Source: Candidatus Omnitrophota bacterium (lineage in GTDB: Bacteria > Omnitrophota > Omnitrophia > Omnitrophales > JACQQS01). Taken from it: 41,861 bases of DNA. Below are positions 3 through 41,774 of this stretch, piece by piece. A program made the translations under genes and the position numbers. The notes beneath the pieces were generated by a model, which was not told the origin of the DNA, did not search any database, and saw only the letters and a list, made by a program, of their open reading frames with translations. The DNA is taken from assembly GCA_016206925.1 (NCBI GenBank), contig JACQQS010000030.1, forward strand, positions 1 to 41,861, read 5' to 3'. Each line of letters begins with the position of its first letter. Position 1 is the first letter of the stretch.

Positions 3-158
3 AACAGCACCCTTCACCTCTTTAAACAAAGAGATGACGGCACACTTGAAAAAGTAGGTGAGCCTCAGGAACTGGATGGATGGGTTTGGACCACCTCCAT
101 CCTTGCCAATGGATATATCCTTGCGGGGACAGGTAACTCCACCCTTCACCTCTTTAAA
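3..158 (+). repeat. Tandem 132-bp coding repeat (44 aa propeller-like unit)
   Basis: The 24 bases at 3-26 and 135-158 differ at only two positions and both encode NSTLHLFK, giving a 132-nt period. The intervening residues (GWVWTTS, GYILAGTG) look like a beta-propeller blade. Only one full unit is visible; more probably lie to the left of the window. Confidence 0.65.
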
Positions 159-3100
159 CTAAAATTGTCTCCTCAAATCGGAACCTCAGATGAGTTACGC
201 CACTGGATCATGGACCGAGAAAAACCGGTTTCTCCGCGCTTGGCGGCGTTTAATGTTGTTGAGCAGGAGAAAGTGTATTATGAATTTGATCCAAAGGTGG
301 GCCCGAAAGGAGCGGTTTTGCCGACGACTTACCGCATGGAAGTGCCCGAAGGAGAGATGCCGGCCGCAAATCCTCACGCGCAGGAGCTCATGGAGAAGTT
401 TGACCGGTTTGAGTCGCTTAATTTTGAGGTCTTGTCTGGTCTTAATAAACAAGAAAAGACCGTCGGCGATTTCAATGATCTTCTTTCAAAGATGCGGCAG
501 ATGCTGAATGCGTACGAAAACCTCTTTAAGAAGCAGCGCTTGGATGAACCGCTCGAAAACATTGCCGCAGCGCCTTCCGATCTTGAGGGCGGGCGAGCCG
601 TTGCTCAGATTTTCCTAAGGATTGAGAACCAGTTAAAGCAAGGTTTGGAAAAAGCGCTTCCGGGCGCGCGTACAACCGATCGCTTGCCCGAAGCAGTCAG
701 ATCCGAGCTTGAGCGCTTTGACGGAGATAAATCCTCCACACTTATTGGGACCCCCGCCGAACATTATTCTCCAGCACAGCAGCAAGGCGTAAGTTTCGCT
801 GAGCTTTTAAACATCGTCCACCAAAAAGGCGTGCGGAATCTTTCGGATATCGTTGCAGGCGTCACCGGCGGCAGAAGGATGCTTACGGTAAAAATCAGAA
901 GGGGCTCTGCGCCTCCAACTGGGCCTACGCCCGCAATTCCTCCAAGCCCAGCGCCGACTGGCGATGTGATTCCGCCGGGAACTTTCTACATCCCTCCGAT
1001 TGAGTCTCCCATTTCTCCGACTCTTGGCATGGGAGAATGGAAGGAGATTCAGGCGTTTATTCAATCATTAAAATCAAAGATCCATTATGTTGGTCCCGTC
1101 GGCGGCACACCCGGCGAGAAACCGCCCGAGGGAACACCCATATTTCATCACCACGCCGCCGCGGATGTTTTGTCAGGATATCTCAAAAATCTCATAAAAG
1201 AAGCCGTTACTAAAAAAAATTTGGCGTATCCAGGGTTTGTTGATAAATGGGTAAAGCTGCACAATTTGCTCGAGAAGTATTTGGGTCCTGAAGTTGAGTA
1301 CGACCCGGATTTCGGTCCTCTGCAGCCCCATCACAGTTTAAAGACCCTATTTTCAGTGATTGTAAATGGCGGTTCTCATCTAGGAAAACTTTCTGAGAAG
1401 GACAAAAACAAGCTTTTAGAATTTGCGAATCAGAACCCCACAAGTGAATTAGACGCAGCCTTGTTTGCGGTGATTAAACAATTACTCAAAGACAGCGAAG
1501 CCGCAGGATTTGGCGCGCAGGAAAATGAATCCTCGATTACGATTAATTATTTGGATGCGCGAAAAAATCCGGATAAAGAACCGCCGCTGCCGGCACACTA
1601 CGTCGCGCTGGCATTTGCCAAAGGCCAACTTGTTCATCAAAATAAAAATCTCTTCACACCCGAAAACGCACTAATTCTTTCCGATGAAAGGCGCGCAATT
1701 GTGGGCATGAGATTAGGCGCGCACAGCGCGCGGATTCAGTTTGCCTTGCTTCCGGTACAGGAAGGCGGACGCGTGGCAGTGAATTACACCGATAGCGGTC
1801 CGTCGTTTGCGCCGGGAAGCGACATTCGCATAAAAGCTTTGGCTGAAGCTTTTGCCGAAGTGGGTTTTAAGGTGCATCAGGAAGGTTACCATTTGGACGC
1901 TTATTTCGATAAAGACAGCGGCGCAAGCTCCATTGATGAACTGCCGGAGAAACTCGAGTTTGCGATTCAGGCTTTATCTTCAACGCTTGATTTAGACACA
2001 GCGATTAACAAGAGCAAGGGCGCAGAGCTGCACGTGGTGCACACGATTTTGACAGGAGATTTAGAGGCGGACGGTTATCTAATTCGTTCAAGACACCAAG
2101 TCGTTCAGACTGGCGGACCAAAGGGGCAGATAAAAGAGCAGACCATTGGGCAGCTTGCCCCGATAGCCGATTTTGTTGGCGTTGATGTTTTGCCCCCCTA
2201 TTTAGGTCAAAGATCGCTCGATAGATTGAGTGAAAAGCTGAGCCTGCTTTTCTCCCGCGGCGCGCTTTTGGTTGGTTCCGATGGTTCAATTCAAAAGAAT
2301 CCTGCGTATGAAGAAGCTTCAAAAGCTTCGCCAATCGAGCGCTTCTTTAAAATCATCGGCGACGCGGATGCGGCGAAGCTTAAAGAACTTCGAAATATTG
2401 CTGCTGTTGCGCGAACCGTGGAAGGTTTTACGCAGCGACGTACGATTGGTGCGGTTGGGCCATTCCACATTGAGCAGTTGACTCTGCCGCTATTGGGTGA
2501 CCAAGTCGTCTTTTATGCTTTGAGGCACAAAGAAGATCTCACAATTCAGTCAGCTTATGCTGTTTTGGGTGAATTTCCTTTCGATCAGTCCCGTTACGAC
2601 CGCTTTCGCGGGAAGCTTCTGCCTAGTGGCAACCTTATTTCGCCTGCAGATCTCGAGGAAATTCTCGTGCCTCAAAACATGGCAGCAAGCGAGTCCCTCG
2701 CACAATGGTTTCGCGAACATGAGAAAGCAAGCGTGGCCGCTTTAATCGCTGGCGAGATCTCCGACGAGATCACACCTAAATATATGTACGAAGCGGGGGT
2801 TTCTGGAACGATTTTTAATCTTCTCCCTTTTTCTGCATTCCTGAATCTGTTGGTACCCGAATTTTCTAAAGACACTCTTAAATCGCAGGCGTTTCAAACC
2901 GAAGTGGTAAGCTGGATATACCTTGAAGGTGTCACGATAAACCAAGGTAAAAGTCTCGGTCGATTGGTTCCTAATGTGGAAGGGAAAAAGGCTGAGGACT
3001 TTAAGAACGGGATTCTCGTGGCCGCCTACACGGACAATAAAGATGACGAAAGCATTAAGATGTCAAGTGGAGTGATCGTCACTACGGGAAGTGTTTTGTC

Positions 3101-5861
3101 GCATGCCGCCATTCGTTCACGTGAGCACGAAAAGCCTGCTGTCATTTTAAACGGCGCTGAGTTTAGGAACGGCAAGCTTCACTTCAAGCGGTTTAAGGGT
3201 GAGGAAGTCAAAAGGGAATTTCAAATTGGCGGCGAACCGATTACTTATTATGAGCTCTCCGATTACACGGAAACCGAGGAAGTTCTAAAGGAAGGCGATC
3301 TTGTGTATTTGGATGCGAAGAATGGAATCCTTTATCTGCTGGCAAGAGCCGAAGAAAAAGAGGCCATTGAACAGTATGAGCGCTACCGAAAATCCTTTGG
3401 TTTCGGCGCAGAAGCCGAACCTTCTCGGGAAAGATTGAAAGAACTAAAAGCGCTTTTGAAAGAAGTTACGAATCCAGGGCTTCTCAAAGCCATCGTCGAT
3501 GAGCTGATTTATCGAGGCGGCGTGCCGATCGCTGCGCTTGAGGAAATCCTTGCCGATGCTGCGAAGGAACCCGCGAGGAAAGGTGTCATCGTAGGCTTTT
3601 TGAGAACACAGGCGCTTCAAGCCATTAAAAATTTCAAGGAAGCCGTTGAGCACTACAAAGAAACCGCCTCTAAAAGCAAAGACATTGAGCAAGTCTACTT
3701 GATGGTGGATGAGATTGTGAGTCAGCAAGAGCATCTTCAGCACATGATCCAGCTTGCAAACGGAGATTGGACTGCGCCCGTAACGAGCACAGGCTCAAGG
3801 GAAATGATCGATGAAGTCATCAAAATTGGCAAGGCTTGGCTTTCCATTTATCAAAAAGAGCTTCAAGGACAGTTTCAACATTTTAGATTAGATCCCTTAA
3901 ATGGTCTCACGCGGCTCCTTAGGATTTCAGCGAGCCTCGGTCTTGCGGGAATTTCTGCTGAGTTAGTTCGTCCGGATCTGGTAGAAAAGATGAAAGAACT
4001 AATGGAAGCGCGCGCATCTGAGGTGGAATCGCAAAAAGGGCGGGGCATTGTGTGGAAAAAAGACTTAAAAGACCGGTTTAGCCGTCCGATTGCTGGCGGC
4101 AAAGCTTCGCATTCCGCTGAAATTGTTCAAGCGCTCGGAACGCTTAAAAAGGCTGGCGCATTGGACGAATCGGTCGTCTATCCCGAAGGTTTCGCGATTC
4201 AGGCGGAAGAATTCCGCCTTTGGCACGACCGAGGAAGACCAGATGAACTTGCGCCAGAACTCAAACAGGCAATTGCATTGGGCTACCGTGATATTGTTAT
4301 TGAGCAGGCGGAGGGCTTGCTCTCATTCCTTGAGGCGGACCAGCGTACGGTGGAACATTGGAAAGTCATGTTGCGTCCCACATTAAAAAAGATTCTAGAA
4401 AATTTGAAGCGTGTAAGCGATCCTTTGGCCATTGACGCAATTGTTCAGGCAGGGCGAGCCTCGGTGCTTGGCGTGGTTGGATTGGCCGAACAATTTTCAA
4501 AAGAAAGCGATGCTCTCAAAACCTCCCAGTCTTTCCTTAAACGCGGCCAAGTCTTCGGCGCAGTTGCGGTGCGTTCTTCCGGGCTGAGAGAGGACAGCCT
4601 TAAGGAAGCGATGGCCGGTCTTAGAAAATCCCCAGTCAATGTGATTGGCGGCCTTGATGACGTTCACCGCGCGGTTCGTGAAGTATGGGAATCAGGTGCA
4701 GAGAGCGTTCTCATTGAAGAAATGATCAATGCCAAGGTTTCAGGTGTTTCCTTCAGCACCGATCCTGTTCAGAAGAGGACAGACCGCATTCGCATTACTG
4801 CTGCACACGGGCTTGCGAAGGGGCTTGTCGATCACGACGTGACAAGTCCTGACTCTTACGTTGTCGCAAAAGAAAAAATCGATGGCTTTCAATACAACAT
4901 GCTTTCTTCTGAAACCGGCACGAAGGAACAGATGGTGATTTTAGACGTGGAGAAGGGCGGCACGAAAATTGTGCAGCGTGAAGCGGACAAAAATCCCGTT
5001 CTTAAAACTGACGATATTGCTCTTGCGGCTAAAACGGTTGATGCATTTTCTAAGTACTTCGGTTTCCAAGTGGACATGGAATGGTCGATCGATTCCGACG
5101 GCCGGTTTGTCGTGCTTCAAGCGCGGCCCATTACCACCATTGCAAGATCCATTGAGCGCGGCAGGCAGTACCTTTTGGGTGATGCAGGGTTTGGCGTAGG
5201 CGGGGCTTCCAGCCCCGCAGAGCAGTTTGTCGCCGCGCAAGAAGCTCCCCCCGCTTCTGATGAGCGCTTGGGGCAGATTCTCTTTCGTAGAACACTTGAA
5301 CGCAGACTTGCGACCGTGGCTGTGCTAGCGGATCGTTACCCTTCGCTTCTGCCCGATCTGCTTAAAGATACATTTGGGCGAGTCGATCGCGCTGCCGAAC
5401 TAGCGGAAGCTGAAAAGCAATCTATTTTGAAGCAAATTGAAAGCTTGGATTTGAGCACGCTTATCATTACCGACTTGGATTATCTAAACCACATGAAAAT
5501 TGCGTTGTCGAATCCCACAATCGGTTCTTTGCTTGAACGTAAGCTCAGCGAAGTTCACCAAGTTTTGGGCTTGTTTGCAAACGTTTCTCAGAATGAAGAA
5601 GCTGTTTTGGCGGAAAGGCTGAGGGAAGAGCTGAATCTGCCGCATTACATTAAGATTGTCGTGGCCGATCACCAAAGGCCTGTTGCCCTTGAATTAAAAT
5701 CCACAGCTATTTCGCTTTTGGGTGAAATTCCTGATAACCTGCGCATAGCTCTTGGTGTGTACGCTGAACAAGTTGCTTCCGATCTCGGCGCGCTTTCCAC
5801 ATTGCTAAATCGCTTTGCCGAGCTTGAGAAAATCACGCGCGCCATCTCCATCGCTGCTTGA
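3..5861 (+). CDS. Giant glucan-dikinase-like protein (5'-partial): propeller repeats, His swivel domain, C-terminal ATP-grasp
   Basis: The frame is open to the left edge, so the N-terminus is missing; an in-frame TTG at 165 is probably internal. Positions 3-164 encode about one 44-residue repeat with motif NSTLHLFK at both ends, resembling a beta-propeller blade. Counting residues from 165, a proline-rich linker lies near 250-290. A phosphohistidine swivel motif follows with LSHAAIRSRE (His about 980). The C-terminal PPDK_N-type ATP-grasp domain contains VAVRSSGLRED (Arg about 1470) and VLQARPITT (about 1651-1659). PEP synthase and PPDK have ATP-grasp first, then His, then a PEP-binding barrel. 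Here the order is His then ATP-grasp, and I see no barrel or catalytic-Cys motif, which matches alpha-glucan water dikinases. Expected chemistry is transfer of the ATP beta-phosphate through His to an unknown acceptor. Domain calls are confident; the substrate is inference. Confidence 0.8.
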   Translation, partial: NSTLHLFKQRDDGTLEKVGEPQELDGWVWTTSILANGYILAGTGNSTLHLFKLKLSPQIGTSDELRHWIMDREKPVSPRLAAFNVVEQEKVYYEFDPKVGPKGAVLPTTYRMEVPEGEMPAANPHAQELMEKFDRFESLNFEVLSGLNKQEKTVGDFNDLLSKMRQMLNAYENLFKKQRLDEPLENIAAAPSDLEGGRAVAQIFLRIENQLKQGLEKALPGARTTDRLPEAVRSELERFDGDKSSTLIGTPAEHYSPAQQQGVSFAELLNIVHQKGVRNLSDIVAGVTGGRRMLTVKIRRGSAPPTGPTPAIPPSPAPTGDVIPPGTFYIPPIESPISPTLGMGEWKEIQAFIQSLKSKIHYVGPVGGTPGEKPPEGTPIFHHHAAADVLSGYLKNLIKEAVTKKNLAYPGFVDKWVKLHNLLEKYLGPEVEYDPDFGPLQPHHSLKTLFSVIVNGGSHLGKLSEKDKNKLLEFANQNPTSELDAALFAVIKQLLKDSEAAGFGAQENESSITINYLDARKNPDKEPPLPAHYVALAFAKGQLVHQNKNLFTPENALILSDERRAIVGMRLGAHSARIQFALLPVQEGGRVAVNYTDSGPSFAPGSDIRIKALAEAFAEVGFKVHQEGYHLDAYFDKDSGASSIDELPEKLEFAIQALSSTLDLDTAINKSKGAELHVVHTILTGDLEADGYLIRSRHQVVQTGGPKGQIKEQTIGQLAPIADFVGVDVLPPYLGQRSLDRLSEKLSLLFSRGALLVGSDGSIQKNPAYEEASKASPIERFFKIIGDADAAKLKELRNIAAVARTVEGFTQRRTIGAVGPFHIEQLTLPLLGDQVVFYALRHKEDLTIQSAYAVLGEFPFDQSRYDRFRGKLLPSGNLISPADLEEILVPQNMAASESLAQWFREHEKASVAALIAGEISDEITPKYMYEAGVSGTIFNLLPFSAFLNLLVPEFSKDTLKSQAFQTEVVSWIYLEGVTINQGKSLGRLVPNVEGKKAEDFKNGILVAAYTDNKDDESIKMSSGVIVTTGSVLSHAAIRSREHEKPAVILNGAEFRNGKLHFKRFKGEEVKREFQIGGEPITYYELSDYTETEEVLKEGDLVYLDAKNGILYLLARAEEKEAIEQYERYRKSFGFGAEAEPSRERLKELKALLKEVTNPGLLKAIVDELIYRGGVPIAALEEILADAAKEPARKGVIVGFLRTQALQAIKNFKEAVEHYKETASKSKDIEQVYLMVDEIVSQQEHLQHMIQLANGDWTAPVTSTGSREMIDEVIKIGKAWLSIYQKELQGQFQHFRLDPLNGLTRLLRISASLGLAGISAELVRPDLVEKMKELMEARASEVESQKGRGIVWKKDLKDRFSRPIAGGKASHSAEIVQALGTLKKAGALDESVVYPEGFAIQAEEFRLWHDRGRPDELAPELKQAIALGYRDIVIEQAEGLLSFLEADQRTVEHWKVMLRPTLKKILENLKRVSDPLAIDAIVQAGRASVLGVVGLAEQFSKESDALKTSQSFLKRGQVFGAVAVRSSGLREDSLKEAMAGLRKSPVNVIGGLDDVHRAVREVWESGAESVLIEEMINAKVSGVSFSTDPVQKRTDRIRITAAHGLAKGLVDHDVTSPDSYVVAKEKIDGFQYNMLSSETGTKEQMVILDVEKGGTKIVQREADKNPVLKTDDIALAAKTVDAFSKYFGFQVDMEWSIDSDGRFVVLQARPITTIARSIERGRQYLLGDAGFGVGGASSPAEQFVAAQEAPPASDERLGQILFRRTLERRLATVAVLADRYPSLLPDLLKDTFGRVDRAAELAEAEKQSILKQIESLDLSTLIITDLDYLNHMKIALSNPTIGSLLERKLSEVHQVLGLFANVSQNEEAVLAERLREELNLPHYIKIVVADHQRPVALELKSTAISLLGEIPDNLRIALGVYAEQVASDLGALSTLLNRFAELEKITRAISIAA
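5200..5218. repeat. GC-rich hairpin inside the dikinase gene
   Basis: Eight-base arms (GCGGGGCT and AGCCCCGC) are separated by a 3-nt loop. The hairpin lies in frame just after the ATP-grasp domain and encodes a Gly/Ala/Ser/Pro-rich linker. It resembles the dispersed intergenic hairpins elsewhere in the window. Confidence 0.5.
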
Positions 5862-19024: not shown

Positions 19025-20053
19025 ATGTTCATGGTCATTTTTCTGCGTGTTATCGTTCTCATCGCATTTGCGGTAATGGGATTTTTCTACGAGGCATTTT
19101 TTGTTGCGCCCCTTCCGCATCTTATCAGCGGTCCGCTTGAGCGTACGTTTGTCGGTCTTTGCTTCGGCGCTGCCGTAATTCTCATCGACATTTATTTCAA
19201 GCGCGTGTCCGTCAAATCAATTTTGTCGGTATTTCTGGGTGGGCTGCTCGGTCTCTCAGCCAGCAGACTGTTGATGGGCGTACTGGCCTACCTTCCGTTC
19301 CCCGAGGAGGTTTTTAAGAATGCGGGGGTGGTAACCGCCCTATGGTTTAGTTATTTGGGGGCGGTGATTATTGTCCGCGGACAGAGTGAGTTTACGACGA
19401 TGATTCCTTTCGTGAAACTGCATACCAAGGATTCGTCGGCGCCGGTAACCATTCTGGACACCAGCGTCATTATTGACGGCCGCGTGGCCGACATGTGCGA
19501 AACGGGGTTTTTGTTCGGGAAGATCATTATTCCGCGCTTTGTCTTAAAAGAGCTCCAGTTAATTGCGGATTCCGCAGATTCGCTCAAGCGGAATCGGGGA
19601 AGAAGAGGTTTGGATGTTCTTAACCGCATCAAGAACAACGCAAAGATTTCCGTCATGATCCATGAAGCGGAGTATCCTGGCGTGACGGGCGTGGATGCCC
19701 AGCTCGTCAGGCTTGCGAAAGATTTAAACGCACACATATTTACGAACGACTACAACCTCAACAAAGTAGCCGAACTTCAGGGTGTTTCCATTCTGAATAT
19801 CAATGAGCTGGCCAATGCTTTAAAGCCTGTAGTGATGCCGGGCGAGGTGCTTCGTGTGAAGGTGATCAAAGAAGGCAAGGAATACGAGCAGGGCATCGCC
19901 TATCTGGATGACGGGACGATGATCGTTGTGGATAATGGAAGATCAAAGATCGGCCAGCATACGGAAGTTACAGTTACAAGCGTTCTTCAAACTCCCGCCG
20001 GACGCATGATATTTGCCCGCTTTGGGGAAGAAGGCGTACGTCCTGTCGTATGA
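19025..20053 (+). CDS. YacL-like membrane PIN-TRAM domain protein
   Basis: The 342-residue protein has about four N-terminal membrane segments (1-125), a PIN nuclease-fold domain beginning ILDTSVIIDGR (Asp145 a likely metal ligand) with TNDYNLN further on, and a C-terminal TRAM domain (about 275-342), a probable RNA-binding module. This matches Bacillus YacL, also encoded between clpC and ispD. Function in vivo is unclear; RNA cleavage is inferred from the PIN fold. AAGGAGGA at 19011-19018 strongly supports the ATG. The 3' end overlaps ispDF by 4 nt (ATGA). Confidence 0.9.
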   Translation: MFMVIFLRVIVLIAFAVMGFFYEAFFVAPLPHLISGPLERTFVGLCFGAAVILIDIYFKRVSVKSILSVFLGGLLGLSASRLLMGVLAYLPFPEEVFKNAGVVTALWFSYLGAVIIVRGQSEFTTMIPFVKLHTKDSSAPVTILDTSVIIDGRVADMCETGFLFGKIIIPRFVLKELQLIADSADSLKRNRGRRGLDVLNRIKNNAKISVMIHEAEYPGVTGVDAQLVRLAKDLNAHIFTNDYNLNKVAELQGVSILNINELANALKPVVMPGEVLRVKVIKEGKEYEQGIAYLDDGTMIVVDNGRSKIGQHTEVTVTSVLQTPAGRMIFARFGEEGVRPVV

Positions 20054-21237
20054 GAATCAGTGCAATTGTTTTAGCCGCCGGCGCCGGTCGGCGATTTCGA
20101 TCGACGGCCGGAAAGCGTTTCAAGCTTCTTAAAGCATTTTATCCGCTTAAATCCCGGCCCATGTTTCTTTATTCTCTGGATATTCTGAGCGCTTCGAAAG
20201 AAATATGTGAAATCATTCTGGCTGTCCCAAGTCAATGGGTTGGCCGCATTCGAAGAAGATTTCTTGGGAAAAAATACTCCCCAAAAGTTTCCGCGGTTGT
20301 GCGCGGCGGGAAAGCGCGAACCGATTCCTGCCAAAGTGCATTTAAGCGTCTCGATCCAAAATCCACGCATGTCCTCATTCATGATGCGGCCCGGCCGCTT
20401 CTATCTTCCAAGGCGTTGGCAAAGCTTGTGAGTGTCGCCAAAAAATATGACGGGGCAATATTGGGAAAGCGTGTGGTTCCCACGATCAAACAAACGGATA
20501 GGAGCCGGTCCATCAAGTTGACCGTGTCCAGGGAAAATATGTGGGAAGCCGAGACGCCGCAGATTTTTAAAAGAGGCCTGCTTGAAAAGGCATTCGCGCA
20601 GTATAAGAAGAATCCCGCCCCCATTTTGGATGATGCCGCGCTCTGTGAGCCGTTGGGCGCCAAAATTAAAATTGTTGAGAATCCCACGCCTAATGTAAAA
20701 ATCACAACCTTTTCCGATTTGCGTCTGGCGGAAAAAATCCTTGCCAACGGCGCTTCCGAGCGATGGGGAATTGGTTTTGATGTACATCGTTTGGTGCCGA
20801 ATCGAAAATTTATGCTGGGCGGCGTCCGGATTACCGGAAAATTCGGCGCTTTGGGTCATTCGGACGGAGATGCTTTGCTTCACGCGGTTACGGACGCTCT
20901 TTTGGGCGCGGCAGGGCTAGGTGATATCGGTGACTGGTTTCCGGACACGAATAAACGGTACCGGGGAGTACCCAGCTCGATTTTTCTCAAACGCGCCCTC
21001 CGGTCTGTGAAAGAACTGGGCCTTGCACCGGTTCATTTGGATACGATCGTTCATCTTGAGAGGCCTAAATTAAAGCAATTCAAAGAAAAGATCCGCAGCC
21101 GTTTGGCAAGTCTCTTATCGATGCGGAAAAGTCAGGTCAATATCAAGGCCAAGACGCACGAGGGCCTCGGGTCGATCGGAAAAGCAAAGGCGGTAGCAGC
21201 CGAAGCCGTTATTACGCTGGGAATGGAAAATGGTTAG
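20050..21237 (+). CDS. ispDF: Bifunctional IspD-IspF of the MEP isoprenoid pathway
   Basis: IspD (about 1-228) makes CDP-methylerythritol, and IspF (about 238-395) makes the cyclic diphosphate. IspD shows IVLAAGAGRR, HDAARPL and AETPQIF. Its usual PKQF motif reads GKRF, keeping the lysine. IspF shows DVHRL (Asp244 and His246 metal ligands), LGHSDGDALLHAVTDAL and EGLGSIGK. Fused forms occur in several bacterial phyla; in Bacillus the two genes are separate but adjacent at this same place. It overlaps gltX by 8 nt. Confidence 0.95.
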   Translation: MRISAIVLAAGAGRRFRSTAGKRFKLLKAFYPLKSRPMFLYSLDILSASKEICEIILAVPSQWVGRIRRRFLGKKYSPKVSAVVRGGKARTDSCQSAFKRLDPKSTHVLIHDAARPLLSSKALAKLVSVAKKYDGAILGKRVVPTIKQTDRSRSIKLTVSRENMWEAETPQIFKRGLLEKAFAQYKKNPAPILDDAALCEPLGAKIKIVENPTPNVKITTFSDLRLAEKILANGASERWGIGFDVHRLVPNRKFMLGGVRITGKFGALGHSDGDALLHAVTDALLGAAGLGDIGDWFPDTNKRYRGVPSSIFLKRALRSVKELGLAPVHLDTIVHLERPKLKQFKEKIRSRLASLLSMRKSQVNIKAKTHEGLGSIGKAKAVAAEAVITLGMENG

Positions 21238-36196: not shown

Positions 36197-37849
<1,653 letters not shown>

Positions 37850-38413: not shown

Positions 38414-40036
38414 ATGCCTAAACAACTGCTGTTTGAAGCGTCCGCCCGGGAAAAGTTGAAGCGCGGACTCGACGCGCTGGCCAATGTGGTCAAGGTTACT
38501 CTTGGGCCGCGCGGACGGAACGTTTTGCTTGACAGGAAATTCGGCGCTCCTTTGATGACCAAGGATGGCGTTACCGTAGCAAAAGAAGTTGATCTGCCCG
38601 ATCCGTATGAGAACCTTGCCGTGCGTATGCTTCGTGAGGTTGCTGAAAAGACTTCTGATCAGGCCGGTGACGGCACGACATCCGCTACGGTATTGGCTCA
38701 GGCCATCTGTACGGAAGGGCTTAAAAATGTGGCTGCGGGCACATCCGCCATGGGTATTAAGCGCGGGCTGGACCGCGGGGCTGCCATGGTCATTGAGGAA
38801 GTCAAGAATTTGTCGAAGCCCGTCAAAGGCAAGGAGAAGCTCGCTCAGGTAGCGACCGTAAGCGCGAACGGCGACACCGAAGTAGGCAATCTTATCGCTG
38901 AAGCAGTGGACAAAGTCGGCGAGAGCGGCGTAGTTACGGTGGAAGAATCGAAAACCACGAAGACCGCGCTTGAGTTCACGGAAGGTATGAATTTTGACCG
39001 GGGATATATTTCGCCTTACTTTGTAACCGATGTTCAGCATATGCGCGCCGTTCTAAGGGAAGCTTACATCCTGCTTTACGAAAAGAAAATCAGCGCTTTA
39101 AAGGACCTCGTTCCGCTTCTTGAAAAGATTGCGCGGACGGGCGGCTCGTTATTGATTGTTGCGGAGGATGTGGAAGGCGAGGCGCTGGCTACGATGGTCG
39201 TCAATAAAATCAGGGGAACGCTCAAAATCGCCGCAGTGAAAGCACCGGGATTTGGCGACCGCCGCAAAGCCATTCTGGAGGATATCGCGGTTCTCACAGG
39301 CGGTAAATTTATTTCAGAGGATTTGGGTCTGAAACTGGAGAAAGTTGATTTAAATATGCTGGGCCGCGCCCAGTCGGTAACGGTCGACAAGGAATCAACG
39401 ACCATCGTTGCCGAGAAGCCGAATAAATCAGCCATTCAGGAGCGCGTGCGGTTGATCCGAAAACAAATAGAAGAAACCACTTCAACCTACGACAAAGAAA
39501 AATTTCAGGAAAGACTGGCTAAACTGGCGAGCGGCGTCTGTGTAGTTAATGTCGGAGCTGCTACGGAAGTGGAGTTGAAGGAGAAGAAGGCGCGCGTGGA
39601 AGATGCGCTTCACGCGACGAAGGCTGCGGCAGAGGAAGGAATCGTTCCGGGCGGCGGAGTTGCGCTTATCCGTGCGCAGAGCGCGCTTGATGCCGCGAAA
39701 ATTTCCGATCCGGATGAGCGGATAGGCATAGCTGTTTTGAGGCGCGCCCTTGAAGAGCCGGCCCGGCAAATTGCCGCAAATGCCGGTTACAACGGTTCGC
39801 TGGTGGTTGAAAATATCAAATCCAAAACGGGCGCATACGGATTTGACGCGGATACTTTTGAGTATAAAGATCTCCTTTCTGCCGGTATCGTTGATCCGGC
39901 AAAAGTGGTGCGGATTGAGATTGAAAATGCCGTGAGCATTGCCGGTTTAATTCTTACCACCGACTGTGCCGTGGCGGAAAAACCGGAAGAGAAAAAGGAA
40001 GAAAAGGGACGGGCGCACGCGCATAGTCATCGCTAA
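38414..40036 (+). CDS. Chaperonin GroEL paralogue (copy 2) with His-rich tail
   Basis: The 540 residues are full length and keep ATPase and folding motifs ([57 protein letters not shown]). Identity to copy 1 is high across the core. The C-terminus differs: it lacks the GGM tail and ends [14 protein letters not shown], charged and histidine-rich. No CIRCE precedes it and no good ribosome binding site is visible; the upstream gap holds the MITE-like repeat. It may be a specialised chaperonin or form mixed rings with copy 1. Function beyond GroEL is inference. Confidence 0.93.
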
Positions 40037-40391: not shown

Positions 40392-41774
40392 ATGAAATCT
40401 ACTGGTAAAAAGCAAACCCTAGTCAAGTATGTTTCTCTCCTTCAAGTCATAGCATTTCTGTGTCCATCCGCAGGTGCAGGGAGTGTCACTTTGCCGGCTC
40501 CCGTGAATTCAATAACGCACGATTCTGCGGCGCGCGAATCGGCCGCGGATTTTAAAGACCTCCTGCCTTTTGAAATTCCCGCAGAATTTGGTTCGATTCG
40601 AGAATTTTTCCTGAGCCCTGAATTTGAGAAGAGTCGCGCGGGCTATTTTTATGTATTGATCGAGGACGCCCACGGAAATCTTTCCGCGCAAAAAAACATT
40701 TACGAGATCACACGTCACCTGGTTAGCGCGCAGCCCGAGAAACCCCTCGTCCTTCTCGAAGGCGCCGTTGGAACGGTGGACACCTCGCTTGTTTCCAGGT
40801 ACCCGGATCAAAAAGTAAAGGAGCGCGTCGCAAACCGGCTTTTTAACAACGGGCAAATTGACGGTATCGAGCTTTTGAATATCAACGAAATGCCTGACTT
40901 AAAACTGATGGGCATCGAAGAGCCGAAAAGCTACAGTAAAAATCTTGAAGCGGCTTTCGCTGTAGTGCCGGAGCAGAACCGTGTGCTCGGCAGGCTGGAG
41001 AAGATCGACCGGATGCTCACGGCGTTCATGCCCTACGTTTGTTCATCTGAATTGACGGAGGTGCTGGCTCATATCGCGCAGAACCGCGAGGCGAATGCGG
41101 CGTTGCCGGATTACCTGAGTTGGCTTATGGACAAGGCAAAAAAGCACACGGTTCCGCTCGGCAAATTTCCTGAGCTTACACGCCTGTTTTCCGAGAAAGA
41201 TCGGGATGCCGGAAGCCTGCTTCTGTCTTTGGACCAGGCCGCCCTTATTTCGGAAATCCGGAATTTGGAGGAGGATCTGGTAAATCTTCTAATCAAAAAT
41301 ACAAGAGAGAAATCATTTGTCAGGGTATTGAATCATTTCCGGCTGTTGGAACGCGCGGTTGCAATGAAGCTCGATCCGGATGAAGCGCGTTATTTCCTGA
41401 AATTCACCGATGAGTTCAAAGAAAAGGTATTTCTCGGCTACCTCAAGAGGGGAAAGAGATTCGATAGAGGGAAAACCGTTACGCCCGGCTCGGACGCGCT
41501 CCTGCCGGCTCTCCGGCAGTTTTATGAACAAGCGCTTAGACGCGACCATGCCATGAAAGAGAAAATGCAGAAAAGAATGTCCGAAGAGCGTACGCAGACG
41601 GCCACTGTCATTACAGGAGGTTTTCATACGGACGGGATCGCCCATTTTTTAAGAGAAGAGGGCGCGTCTTATGTCGTTATTACTCCCCAAGTGTCCGACC
41701 ATCTTGGCGCTACTCTCTACCGCAACAGTATTCTAAGATTCCTTAACTCAATGATAGGTAAGCCACTGGTTTGA
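40392..41774 (+). CDS. Secreted protein with distant TIKI/TraB/ChaN-like pattern
   Basis: I do not recognise a named family. The 460 residues start with a signal peptide (basic KKQTLVK, hydrophobic to about 24, likely cut near 29). Two segments recall the TIKI/TraB/ChaN superfamily: VLIEDAHGNLSAQ (Glu91, Asp92, His94) with LVLLEGA (Glu123) about 30 residues on, and near the C-terminus VITGGFHTDGIAHFL (His412). Members are metal-dependent hydrolases or binding proteins, so a surface or periplasmic enzyme is possible. The middle (about 190-380) is helical. It has its own promoter and terminator-bounded unit. The assignment is by eye and weak. Confidence 0.55.
   Translation: MKSTGKKQTLVKYVSLLQVIAFLCPSAGAGSVTLPAPVNSITHDSAARESAADFKDLLPFEIPAEFGSIREFFLSPEFEKSRAGYFYVLIEDAHGNLSAQKNIYEITRHLVSAQPEKPLVLLEGAVGTVDTSLVSRYPDQKVKERVANRLFNNGQIDGIELLNINEMPDLKLMGIEEPKSYSKNLEAAFAVVPEQNRVLGRLEKIDRMLTAFMPYVCSSELTEVLAHIAQNREANAALPDYLSWLMDKAKKHTVPLGKFPELTRLFSEKDRDAGSLLLSLDQAALISEIRNLEEDLVNLLIKNTREKSFVRVLNHFRLLERAVAMKLDPDEARYFLKFTDEFKEKVFLGYLKRGKRFDRGKTVTPGSDALLPALRQFYEQALRRDHAMKEKMQKRMSEERTQTATVITGGFHTDGIAHFLREEGASYVVITPQVSDHLGATLYRNSILRFLNSMIGKPLV

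What the first reader, a model, noticed from the sequence alone, without database searches (positions are those of the whole stretch)
3..5861. Giant dikinase with permuted domains and propeller repeats: acceptor unknown
The His swivel motif (LSHAAIRSRE, His about 980) lies before the ATP-grasp domain (R1470, ARP at 1653-1655), and no PEP-binding barrel follows. That order is known in glucan water dikinases, not in PEP synthase or PPDK. Adding beta-propeller-like repeats and about 900 unassigned residues makes an architecture I do not know. It could phosphorylate a polysaccharide or another surface or storage polymer.
Basis: partly seen in the sequence, partly recalled or inferred. Interest (0 to 1): 0.72.

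Follow-up and report, generated by a model that had tools for sequence, protein, structure and literature searches.

The report
Giant dikinase in modular Omnitrophota proteins
The gene encodes a real, probably active phosphate-transferring enzyme with its parts in an unusual order, and it is one of many enzymes that bacteria of the poorly known phylum Omnitrophota attach behind a shared, export-like head to build giant proteins that can fill a fifth of the genome.

Summary
Confirmed: bases 3-5861 encode the last 1,952 residues of a larger protein (5' end lost at the contig edge), with a phosphohistidine swivel (His1034) before an ATP-grasp domain and no PEP barrel. The propeller claim rests on one 44-residue unit. 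The organism belongs to Omnitrophota. The same order recurs in giant ORFs (2,261-12,928 aa); 14 of 384 genomes of the phylum have the core. Every catalytic residue is kept at 22-41% identity, so I think the enzyme is active. The acceptor is unknown; the best candidate site is a new domain N-terminal to the swivel with invariant His574, Arg609 and Lys637. A polysaccharide role is not supported. The larger result is the context. Most complete relatives begin with a signal-like segment and a ~500-residue head that looks like a divergent TIKI/erythromycin-esterase-fold hydrolase. This head is in half of 285 Omnitrophota genomes, up to ~50 copies each, followed by swapped payloads (one carries isocitrate lyase, malate synthase, PEP carboxykinase and glutamate dehydrogenase). 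Such proteins usually end in a helix closing in Ala-Ala, as the window protein does (SIAA). Heads follow genomes, not payloads. The dikinase is one payload of a polymorphic giant-protein family; the site of action is unproven.

The parts
3..5861 (+). Giant dikinase gene, 3' part (1,952 codons plus stop), truncated at the contig start
3..158 (+). One 44-residue propeller-like unit and the first 8 residues of a second (NSTLHLFK at aa 1 and 45); contig ends inside it
222..860 (+). Helical segment (aa 74-286) conserved in relatives L012, L014, L034, L035
861..1502 (+). Insert (aa ~287-500), Pro-rich then helical-looking, not aligned in relatives
1548..2102 (+). New domain X (aa ~516-700), invariant H574, R609, K637; candidate acceptor site
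2100..2867 (+). New domain Y (aa 700-955) between X and swivel, conserved in the family
2868..3377 (+). Phosphohistidine swivel (aa 956-1125), LSHAAIRSRE
3102..3104 (+). Codon of His1034, the predicted phospho-acceptor histidine (9 of 9 proteins aligned there)
3378..4079 (+). All-helical linker (aa 1126-1359), absent from the most distant relatives
4080..5177 (+). PPDK_N ATP-grasp (aa 1360-1725) with K1367, R1524, E1530, D1531, E1693, Q1706, R1708 all conserved
5799..5858 (+). C-terminal tail (last 20 residues, ends AISIAA), fits the family's Ala-Ala-ending helix
40392..41774 (+). Stand-alone copy of the TIKI-like head module (460 aa, no payload, no Ala-Ala tail); second member of the giant-protein family in the window

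Best explanation
The gene is the C-terminal part of a giant modular protein of an Omnitrophota bacterium. By homology the full protein is: signal-like segment, ~500-residue TIKI-fold head, variable repeat region, domains X and Y, phosphohistidine swivel, helical linker, ATP-grasp, C-terminal Ala-Ala tail. As in other dikinases (inferred), the ATP-grasp passes the beta-phosphate of ATP to His1034, and the swivel carries it to an acceptor that is not pyruvate, most likely bound by domain X on the N-terminal side of the swivel. The enzyme is one of many swapped enzyme payloads carried behind the same head and in front of the same tail, a polymorphic family probably exported from the cytoplasm. 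Shown: domain order, family, conserved catalytic residues, head and tail statistics, head-payload swapping. Inferred: activity, the acceptor site, export, and that the window protein itself has the head, which would lie off the contig.
For: Order X-Y-swivel-ATP-grasp is the same in window, L013, L014, L016, L034, L035, L036, L037 and L038, and in L012 joined to L015; the core region is found in 14 of 384 genomes of the phylum. Swivel His and K1367, R1524, S1525, E1530, D1531, E1693, Q1706, R1708, plus X-domain H574, R609, K637, are 9 of 9. Folds confirmed by Foldseek. The head occurs at the N-terminus of 6 of 7 dikinase giants with a complete 5' end and in 143 of 285 genomes. 60 of 69 such ORFs end in Ala against 3 of 31 other window genes; the window protein ends SIAA. 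In the head tree the five dikinase heads do not group; four of the five have as sister a head of another giant from the same genome or the same taxonomic family. Payload enzymes. Named loci are Candidatus Omnitrophica/Omnitrophota.
Against: The window protein's own head is not in hand; no other contig of the bin carries the end repeat. One complete relative (L035) lacks both the head and the Ala-Ala tail. The head's fold match is weak (Foldseek best E = 0.05). No signal-peptide program was available; a hydropathy cut-off marks only 34 of 79 N-termini. An exported ATP-using enzyme would need ATP where it acts. The X-domain acceptor role rests on conservation and position alone.
Confidence: 0.7

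Rival explanations
1. A bacterial analogue of glucan water dikinase that phosphorylates a storage or surface polysaccharide, with the repeats or domain X holding the glycan.
For: Same relative order of phosphohistidine and ATP-binding domains as GWD (own knowledge; His992 of potato GWD is in the phosphohistidine domain, PMC12892837). Other giants carry glycan enzymes (starch synthase, alpha-amylase, 4-alpha-glucanotransferase).
Against: No carbohydrate-binding module or GWD-specific family matched in the window protein or in complete relatives. The repeat region is not conserved in kind between relatives. Neighbouring genes checked are housekeeping.
Confidence: 0.15
2. A permuted relic of PEP synthase/PPDK that has lost its acceptor domain and no longer catalyses.
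For: The barrel is missing; the ATP-grasp is closest to PEP synthases and related enzymes. It is the only PPDK_N ORF in its own 86%-complete bin.
Against: All catalytic residues tested are invariant at 22-41% identity, which a relic would not keep. All seven relatives searched have a separate 867-944-aa PPDK_N ORF.
Confidence: 0.1
3. The giants are effector-like proteins delivered into a host or prey cell, where ATP and metabolites are available; the dikinase and the other metabolic enzymes act there.
For: Signal-like N-termini, common head, swapped payloads and a C-terminal tag resemble polymorphic secreted effectors. Payloads need cytosolic substrates. Omnitrophota are thought to be host-dependent or predatory and have giant ORFs of unknown function (PMC10066038).
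Against: No delivery machinery was identified; no localisation data; the payloads recognised are metabolic enzymes rather than known toxins.
Confidence: 0.25
4. Assembly or gene-calling artefact: neighbouring genes read as one frame.
For: The contig ends inside a repeat and the data are metagenomic.
Against: The same fused order recurs in independent assemblies of several genera, with no internal stop.
Confidence: 0.02

Closest known systems
Glucan water dikinase / phosphoglucan water dikinase (plants)
   Same: Phosphohistidine domain N-terminal to a C-terminal ATP-binding domain; no PEP barrel
   Different: No CBM45 or other carbohydrate-binding family; X and Y domains, TIKI-like head and Ala-Ala tail are absent from GWD as far as I know; bacterial, probably exported
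PEP synthase / PPDK and rifampin phosphotransferase
   Same: PPDK_N ATP-grasp and His swivel folds with conserved catalytic residues
   Different: Opposite order of the two domains; no PEP barrel; no rifampin-type acceptor domain detected
TIKI superfamily (erythromycin esterase, ChaN, HopBA1)
   Same: The head module's best solved-structure matches are EreC and HopBA1, with ChaN at rank 11; two invariant His, one invariant Glu, one Glu/Asp and one Arg
   Different: Sequence is too divergent for Pfam (Erythro_esteras E = 0.46, one member of five); it heads giant multi-enzyme proteins in tens of copies
Polymorphic toxin/effector families (logic only)
   Same: Common N-terminal module with interchangeable C-terminal payloads; heads tend to resemble those of the same genome or taxonomic family
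   Different: Payloads recognised here are mostly metabolic enzymes and repeats; an additional common C-terminal tail
Omnitrophota giant ORFs described in PMC10066038
   Same: Same phylum and size class
   Different: Described there as having few annotated domains and, in Velamenicoccia, being poorly conserved; the shared head, tail and dikinase were not mentioned in the passages found

Membership tests
Glucan water dikinase (GWD/PWD) | Phosphohistidine domain before ATP-binding domain | tested here: met
Glucan water dikinase (GWD/PWD) | N-terminal starch-binding modules (CBM45 or similar) | tested here: not met
   No such family in window protein or complete relatives; window N-terminus is truncated
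Glucan water dikinase (GWD/PWD) | Phosphorylation of alpha-glucan | not testable with these tools
   Needs an assay
PEP synthase / PPDK | PPDK_N ATP-grasp with catalytic residues | tested here: met
PEP synthase / PPDK | PEP/pyruvate-binding TIM barrel (PEP-utilizers_C) | tested here: not met
   the barrel is detected in another giant, L119, so the search can see it
PEP synthase / PPDK | ATP-grasp N-terminal to swivel | tested here: not met
TIKI superfamily (head module) | Fold match to Ere/ChaN/HopBA1 | tested here: inconclusive
   Ranks 1, 2, 3 and 11 are superfamily members, but best E = 0.05
TIKI superfamily (head module) | Catalytic His/Glu residues | tested here: inconclusive
   H94, E123, R384, H412 in 49 of 49 and E/D176 in 49 of 49, as a 2His/2Glu site would require; positional equivalence to the known site not checked residue by residue
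Polymorphic secreted effector family | Common N-terminal module, swapped payloads | tested here: met
Polymorphic secreted effector family | Secretion and delivery | not testable with these tools
   Signal-like segments only

The most novel reading that the evidence does not exclude
Omnitrophota run a dedicated export or compartment system for giant multi-enzyme proteins: a Sec-type signal and a TIKI-fold hydrolase head, interchangeable blocks of central-carbon and phosphate-transfer enzymes (including a dikinase with a new acceptor domain), and a C-terminal Ala-Ala helix read by a specific receptor or protease. Metabolism would then be carried out by exported polyproteins outside the cytoplasm or inside another cell.
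Probability: 0.35. Interest if true: 0.93.

Novelty: new variant of a known kind. Interest (0 to 1): 0.8.

Why it matters
The giant ORFs of Omnitrophota, among the largest known bacterial genes, have been described as having few recognisable domains (PMC10066038). A common head and tail give a way to recognise and count them, show that many of them form one family, and make their processing and location testable with antibodies or proteomics against a single module. For the dikinase it defines a family with conserved residues, so the acceptor can be sought. If the giants are exported, whole metabolic pathways placed behind a signal peptide would be a new kind of bacterial physiology.

Tried and rejected
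Pattern scans for close relatives in genome contigs and viral contigs with the single protein found none; an alignment query found two, which named the phylum. Two alignment queries had no stretch conserved enough. Plasmids: no match for the head. Search for the missing 5' part through the end repeat: no second contig. A conserved C-terminal domain before the tail was sought by BLAST: only small groups, so the shared element is the ~20-residue tail. A membrane-anchored common topology was considered; 43 of 79 head proteins have no strongly hydrophobic segment after the head. Co-inheritance of head and dikinase was rejected by the head tree. Reading the Ala-Ala tail as proof of ClpXP targeting was rejected: the organism's tmRNA tag also ends ALAA, but that is only a resemblance.

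Full report
Setting. The window is the whole of contig C3 of a 2.01-Mb metagenome bin (86% complete, 87 contigs).

The observation. Bases 3-5861 are one open frame of 1,952 residues that runs off the contig's left edge. Pfam finds the swivel (aa 1002-1108) before the ATP-grasp (aa 1363-1716) and no barrel. The contig breaks off inside a 44-residue repeat, so the propeller is barely visible in the window; the repeat does not occur elsewhere in the bin. In relatives the same region holds WD40-like stretches (L035; weak) or 34-residue solenoid repeats (L034; lag-34 score 1.05 against a shuffle 99th percentile of -0.52). So the repeat scaffold is exchangeable and probably not part of the enzyme.

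The enzyme family. Searching 58 and then 384 genomes of the phylum gave 14 genomes with the conserved core region, mostly in very long frames. Profiles of domains X (aa 562-700), Y (700-955), swivel (955-1125) and ATP-grasp (1360-1725) hit the same proteins in the same order. In the largest (12,928 aa) the swivel profile does not reach threshold, but a His in the context NHAN stands at the right place. Across nine aligned proteins the swivel His and eight ATP-grasp residues are invariant, as are H574, R609 and K637 of X. The AlphaFold2 model of the core has mean pLDDT 76; Foldseek matches are to HpeI (1.3e-13), PEP synthase, rifampin phosphotransferase and PPDK, and to the PPDK phosphoryl-carrier domain. 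X and Y gave no match of their own among the hits listed and no Pfam match. All seven relatives searched carry a separate 867-944-aa ORF with PPDK_N. In the window's own bin this is the only PPDK_N frame, which may reflect incompleteness.

Context: a common head. Dikinase giants with a complete start, except L035, share a ~500-residue N-terminal module after a signal-like segment. It is in 143 of 285 Omnitrophota genomes, with tens of copies in some: summed frames are about 0.13 Mb in the window's bin, 0.21 Mb in G067, 0.42 Mb in G015 and 0.74 Mb in G021, or 6, 12, 16 and 21% of the genome by rounded sizes. A stand-alone copy lies in the window itself at 40392-41774. Its model (pLDDT 85.5) has EreC and HopBA1 as best solved matches and ChaN at rank 11; PMC6254334 lists HopBA1, ChaN and an Ere-family protein among the TIKI superfamily. 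Scores are weak, but H94, E123, R384, G409, G410 and H412 are invariant in 49 of 49 and position 176 is Glu or Asp in all. I call it a probable divergent TIKI-fold hydrolase.

Context: a common tail. Of 69 proteins (68 with the head, plus the window dikinase), 60 end in Ala and 46 have Ala at position -2, with Leu/Ile at -15, Ala at -9 and Val/Ile/Leu at -5; 3 of 31 other window genes end in Ala. With further giants whose starts are off the stretch, 63 of 72 end in Ala and 47 in Ala-Ala. The sample was chosen by head score from about a dozen genomes, so the figures describe this set. The window dikinase ends AISIAA, which is one reason to think it carries the head; L035 has neither.

Payloads. 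Pfam scans of 41 giants gave mostly different families per protein: PEP carboxykinase, isocitrate lyase, malate synthase, UDP-glucose dehydrogenase, macro, NUDIX, starch synthase, alpha-amylase, ABC1 kinase, hexokinase, FBPase, 4-alpha-glucanotransferase, methyltransferases, TPR and HEAT repeats. L120 (3,587 aa) has isocitrate lyase (with KKCGH), malate synthase, PEPCK and glutamate dehydrogenase in one chain; L119 has a canonical-order PPDK with its barrel. Ordinary-sized GAPDH genes exist beside a giant with a GAPDH-like piece, so that payload is an extra copy. Many payloads have no Pfam match at all.

Swapping. In a tree of 49 heads the five dikinase heads are scattered; L034's sister is L153 of the same genome, L013's is L110 of the same genome, L012's and L037's come from the same taxonomic families, and only L016's is from another family. 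Heads therefore tend to follow genomes while payloads follow function, as expected if modules are exchanged or heads are homogenised.

Mechanism and its limits. The dikinase chemistry is inferred from residue conservation and fold. Placing the acceptor at X is a guess from position and invariant polar residues. Export is inferred from N-terminal sequences read by eye; a strict hydropathy threshold marks only 34 of 79. If the proteins are exported, ATP supply becomes the main puzzle, and action inside a host, prey cell or internal compartment would solve it; none of this was tested.

Novelty. The dikinase is a new permuted variant of a known enzyme kind. The head-payload-tail family was not mentioned in the passages I found in papers on Omnitrophota giants; the West-Roberts giant-gene preprint (no bioRxiv held) and the Velamenicoccus paper could not be read, so prior description cannot be excluded.

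Noticed in passing
window 40392-41774: Stand-alone TIKI-like head module gene without payload or Ala-Ala tail, just downstream of two Cpn60 paralogues (36215-37849 and 38414-40036).
   Followed up: partly
L120:398-11158 (G015:C4): One 3,587-aa frame with signal-like start, head, isocitrate lyase, malate synthase, PEP carboxykinase and glutamate dehydrogenase, ending Ala-Ala-Ala.
   Followed up: partly
L119:350-14488 (G015:C20): A 4,713-aa giant with the head and a canonical-order PPDK including the PEP barrel.
   Followed up: partly
G113:C68: A frame of 35,884 codons with weak PPDK_N matches, a very long bacterial ORF.
   Followed up: no
L040-L042 (G232:C17): Two giant frames in tandem (at least 8,265 aa, then 12,928 aa), both with ATP-grasp-like matches; the first ends LIAA.
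   Followed up: partly
L034:3064-13392, aa ~770-1500: About twenty similar 34-residue solenoid repeats (ALGSAYASLTSSQQSEIYPILKT) in the place where the window has a propeller-like unit.
   Followed up: partly
L169 (G000:C11:16485-16878): tmRNA tag ADENLAFERVDISPMSMPLALAA of the window's organism ends like the giants' tails.
   Followed up: partly
window 20050-21237: IspD and IspF (YgbB) fused in one 395-aa gene.
   Followed up: no
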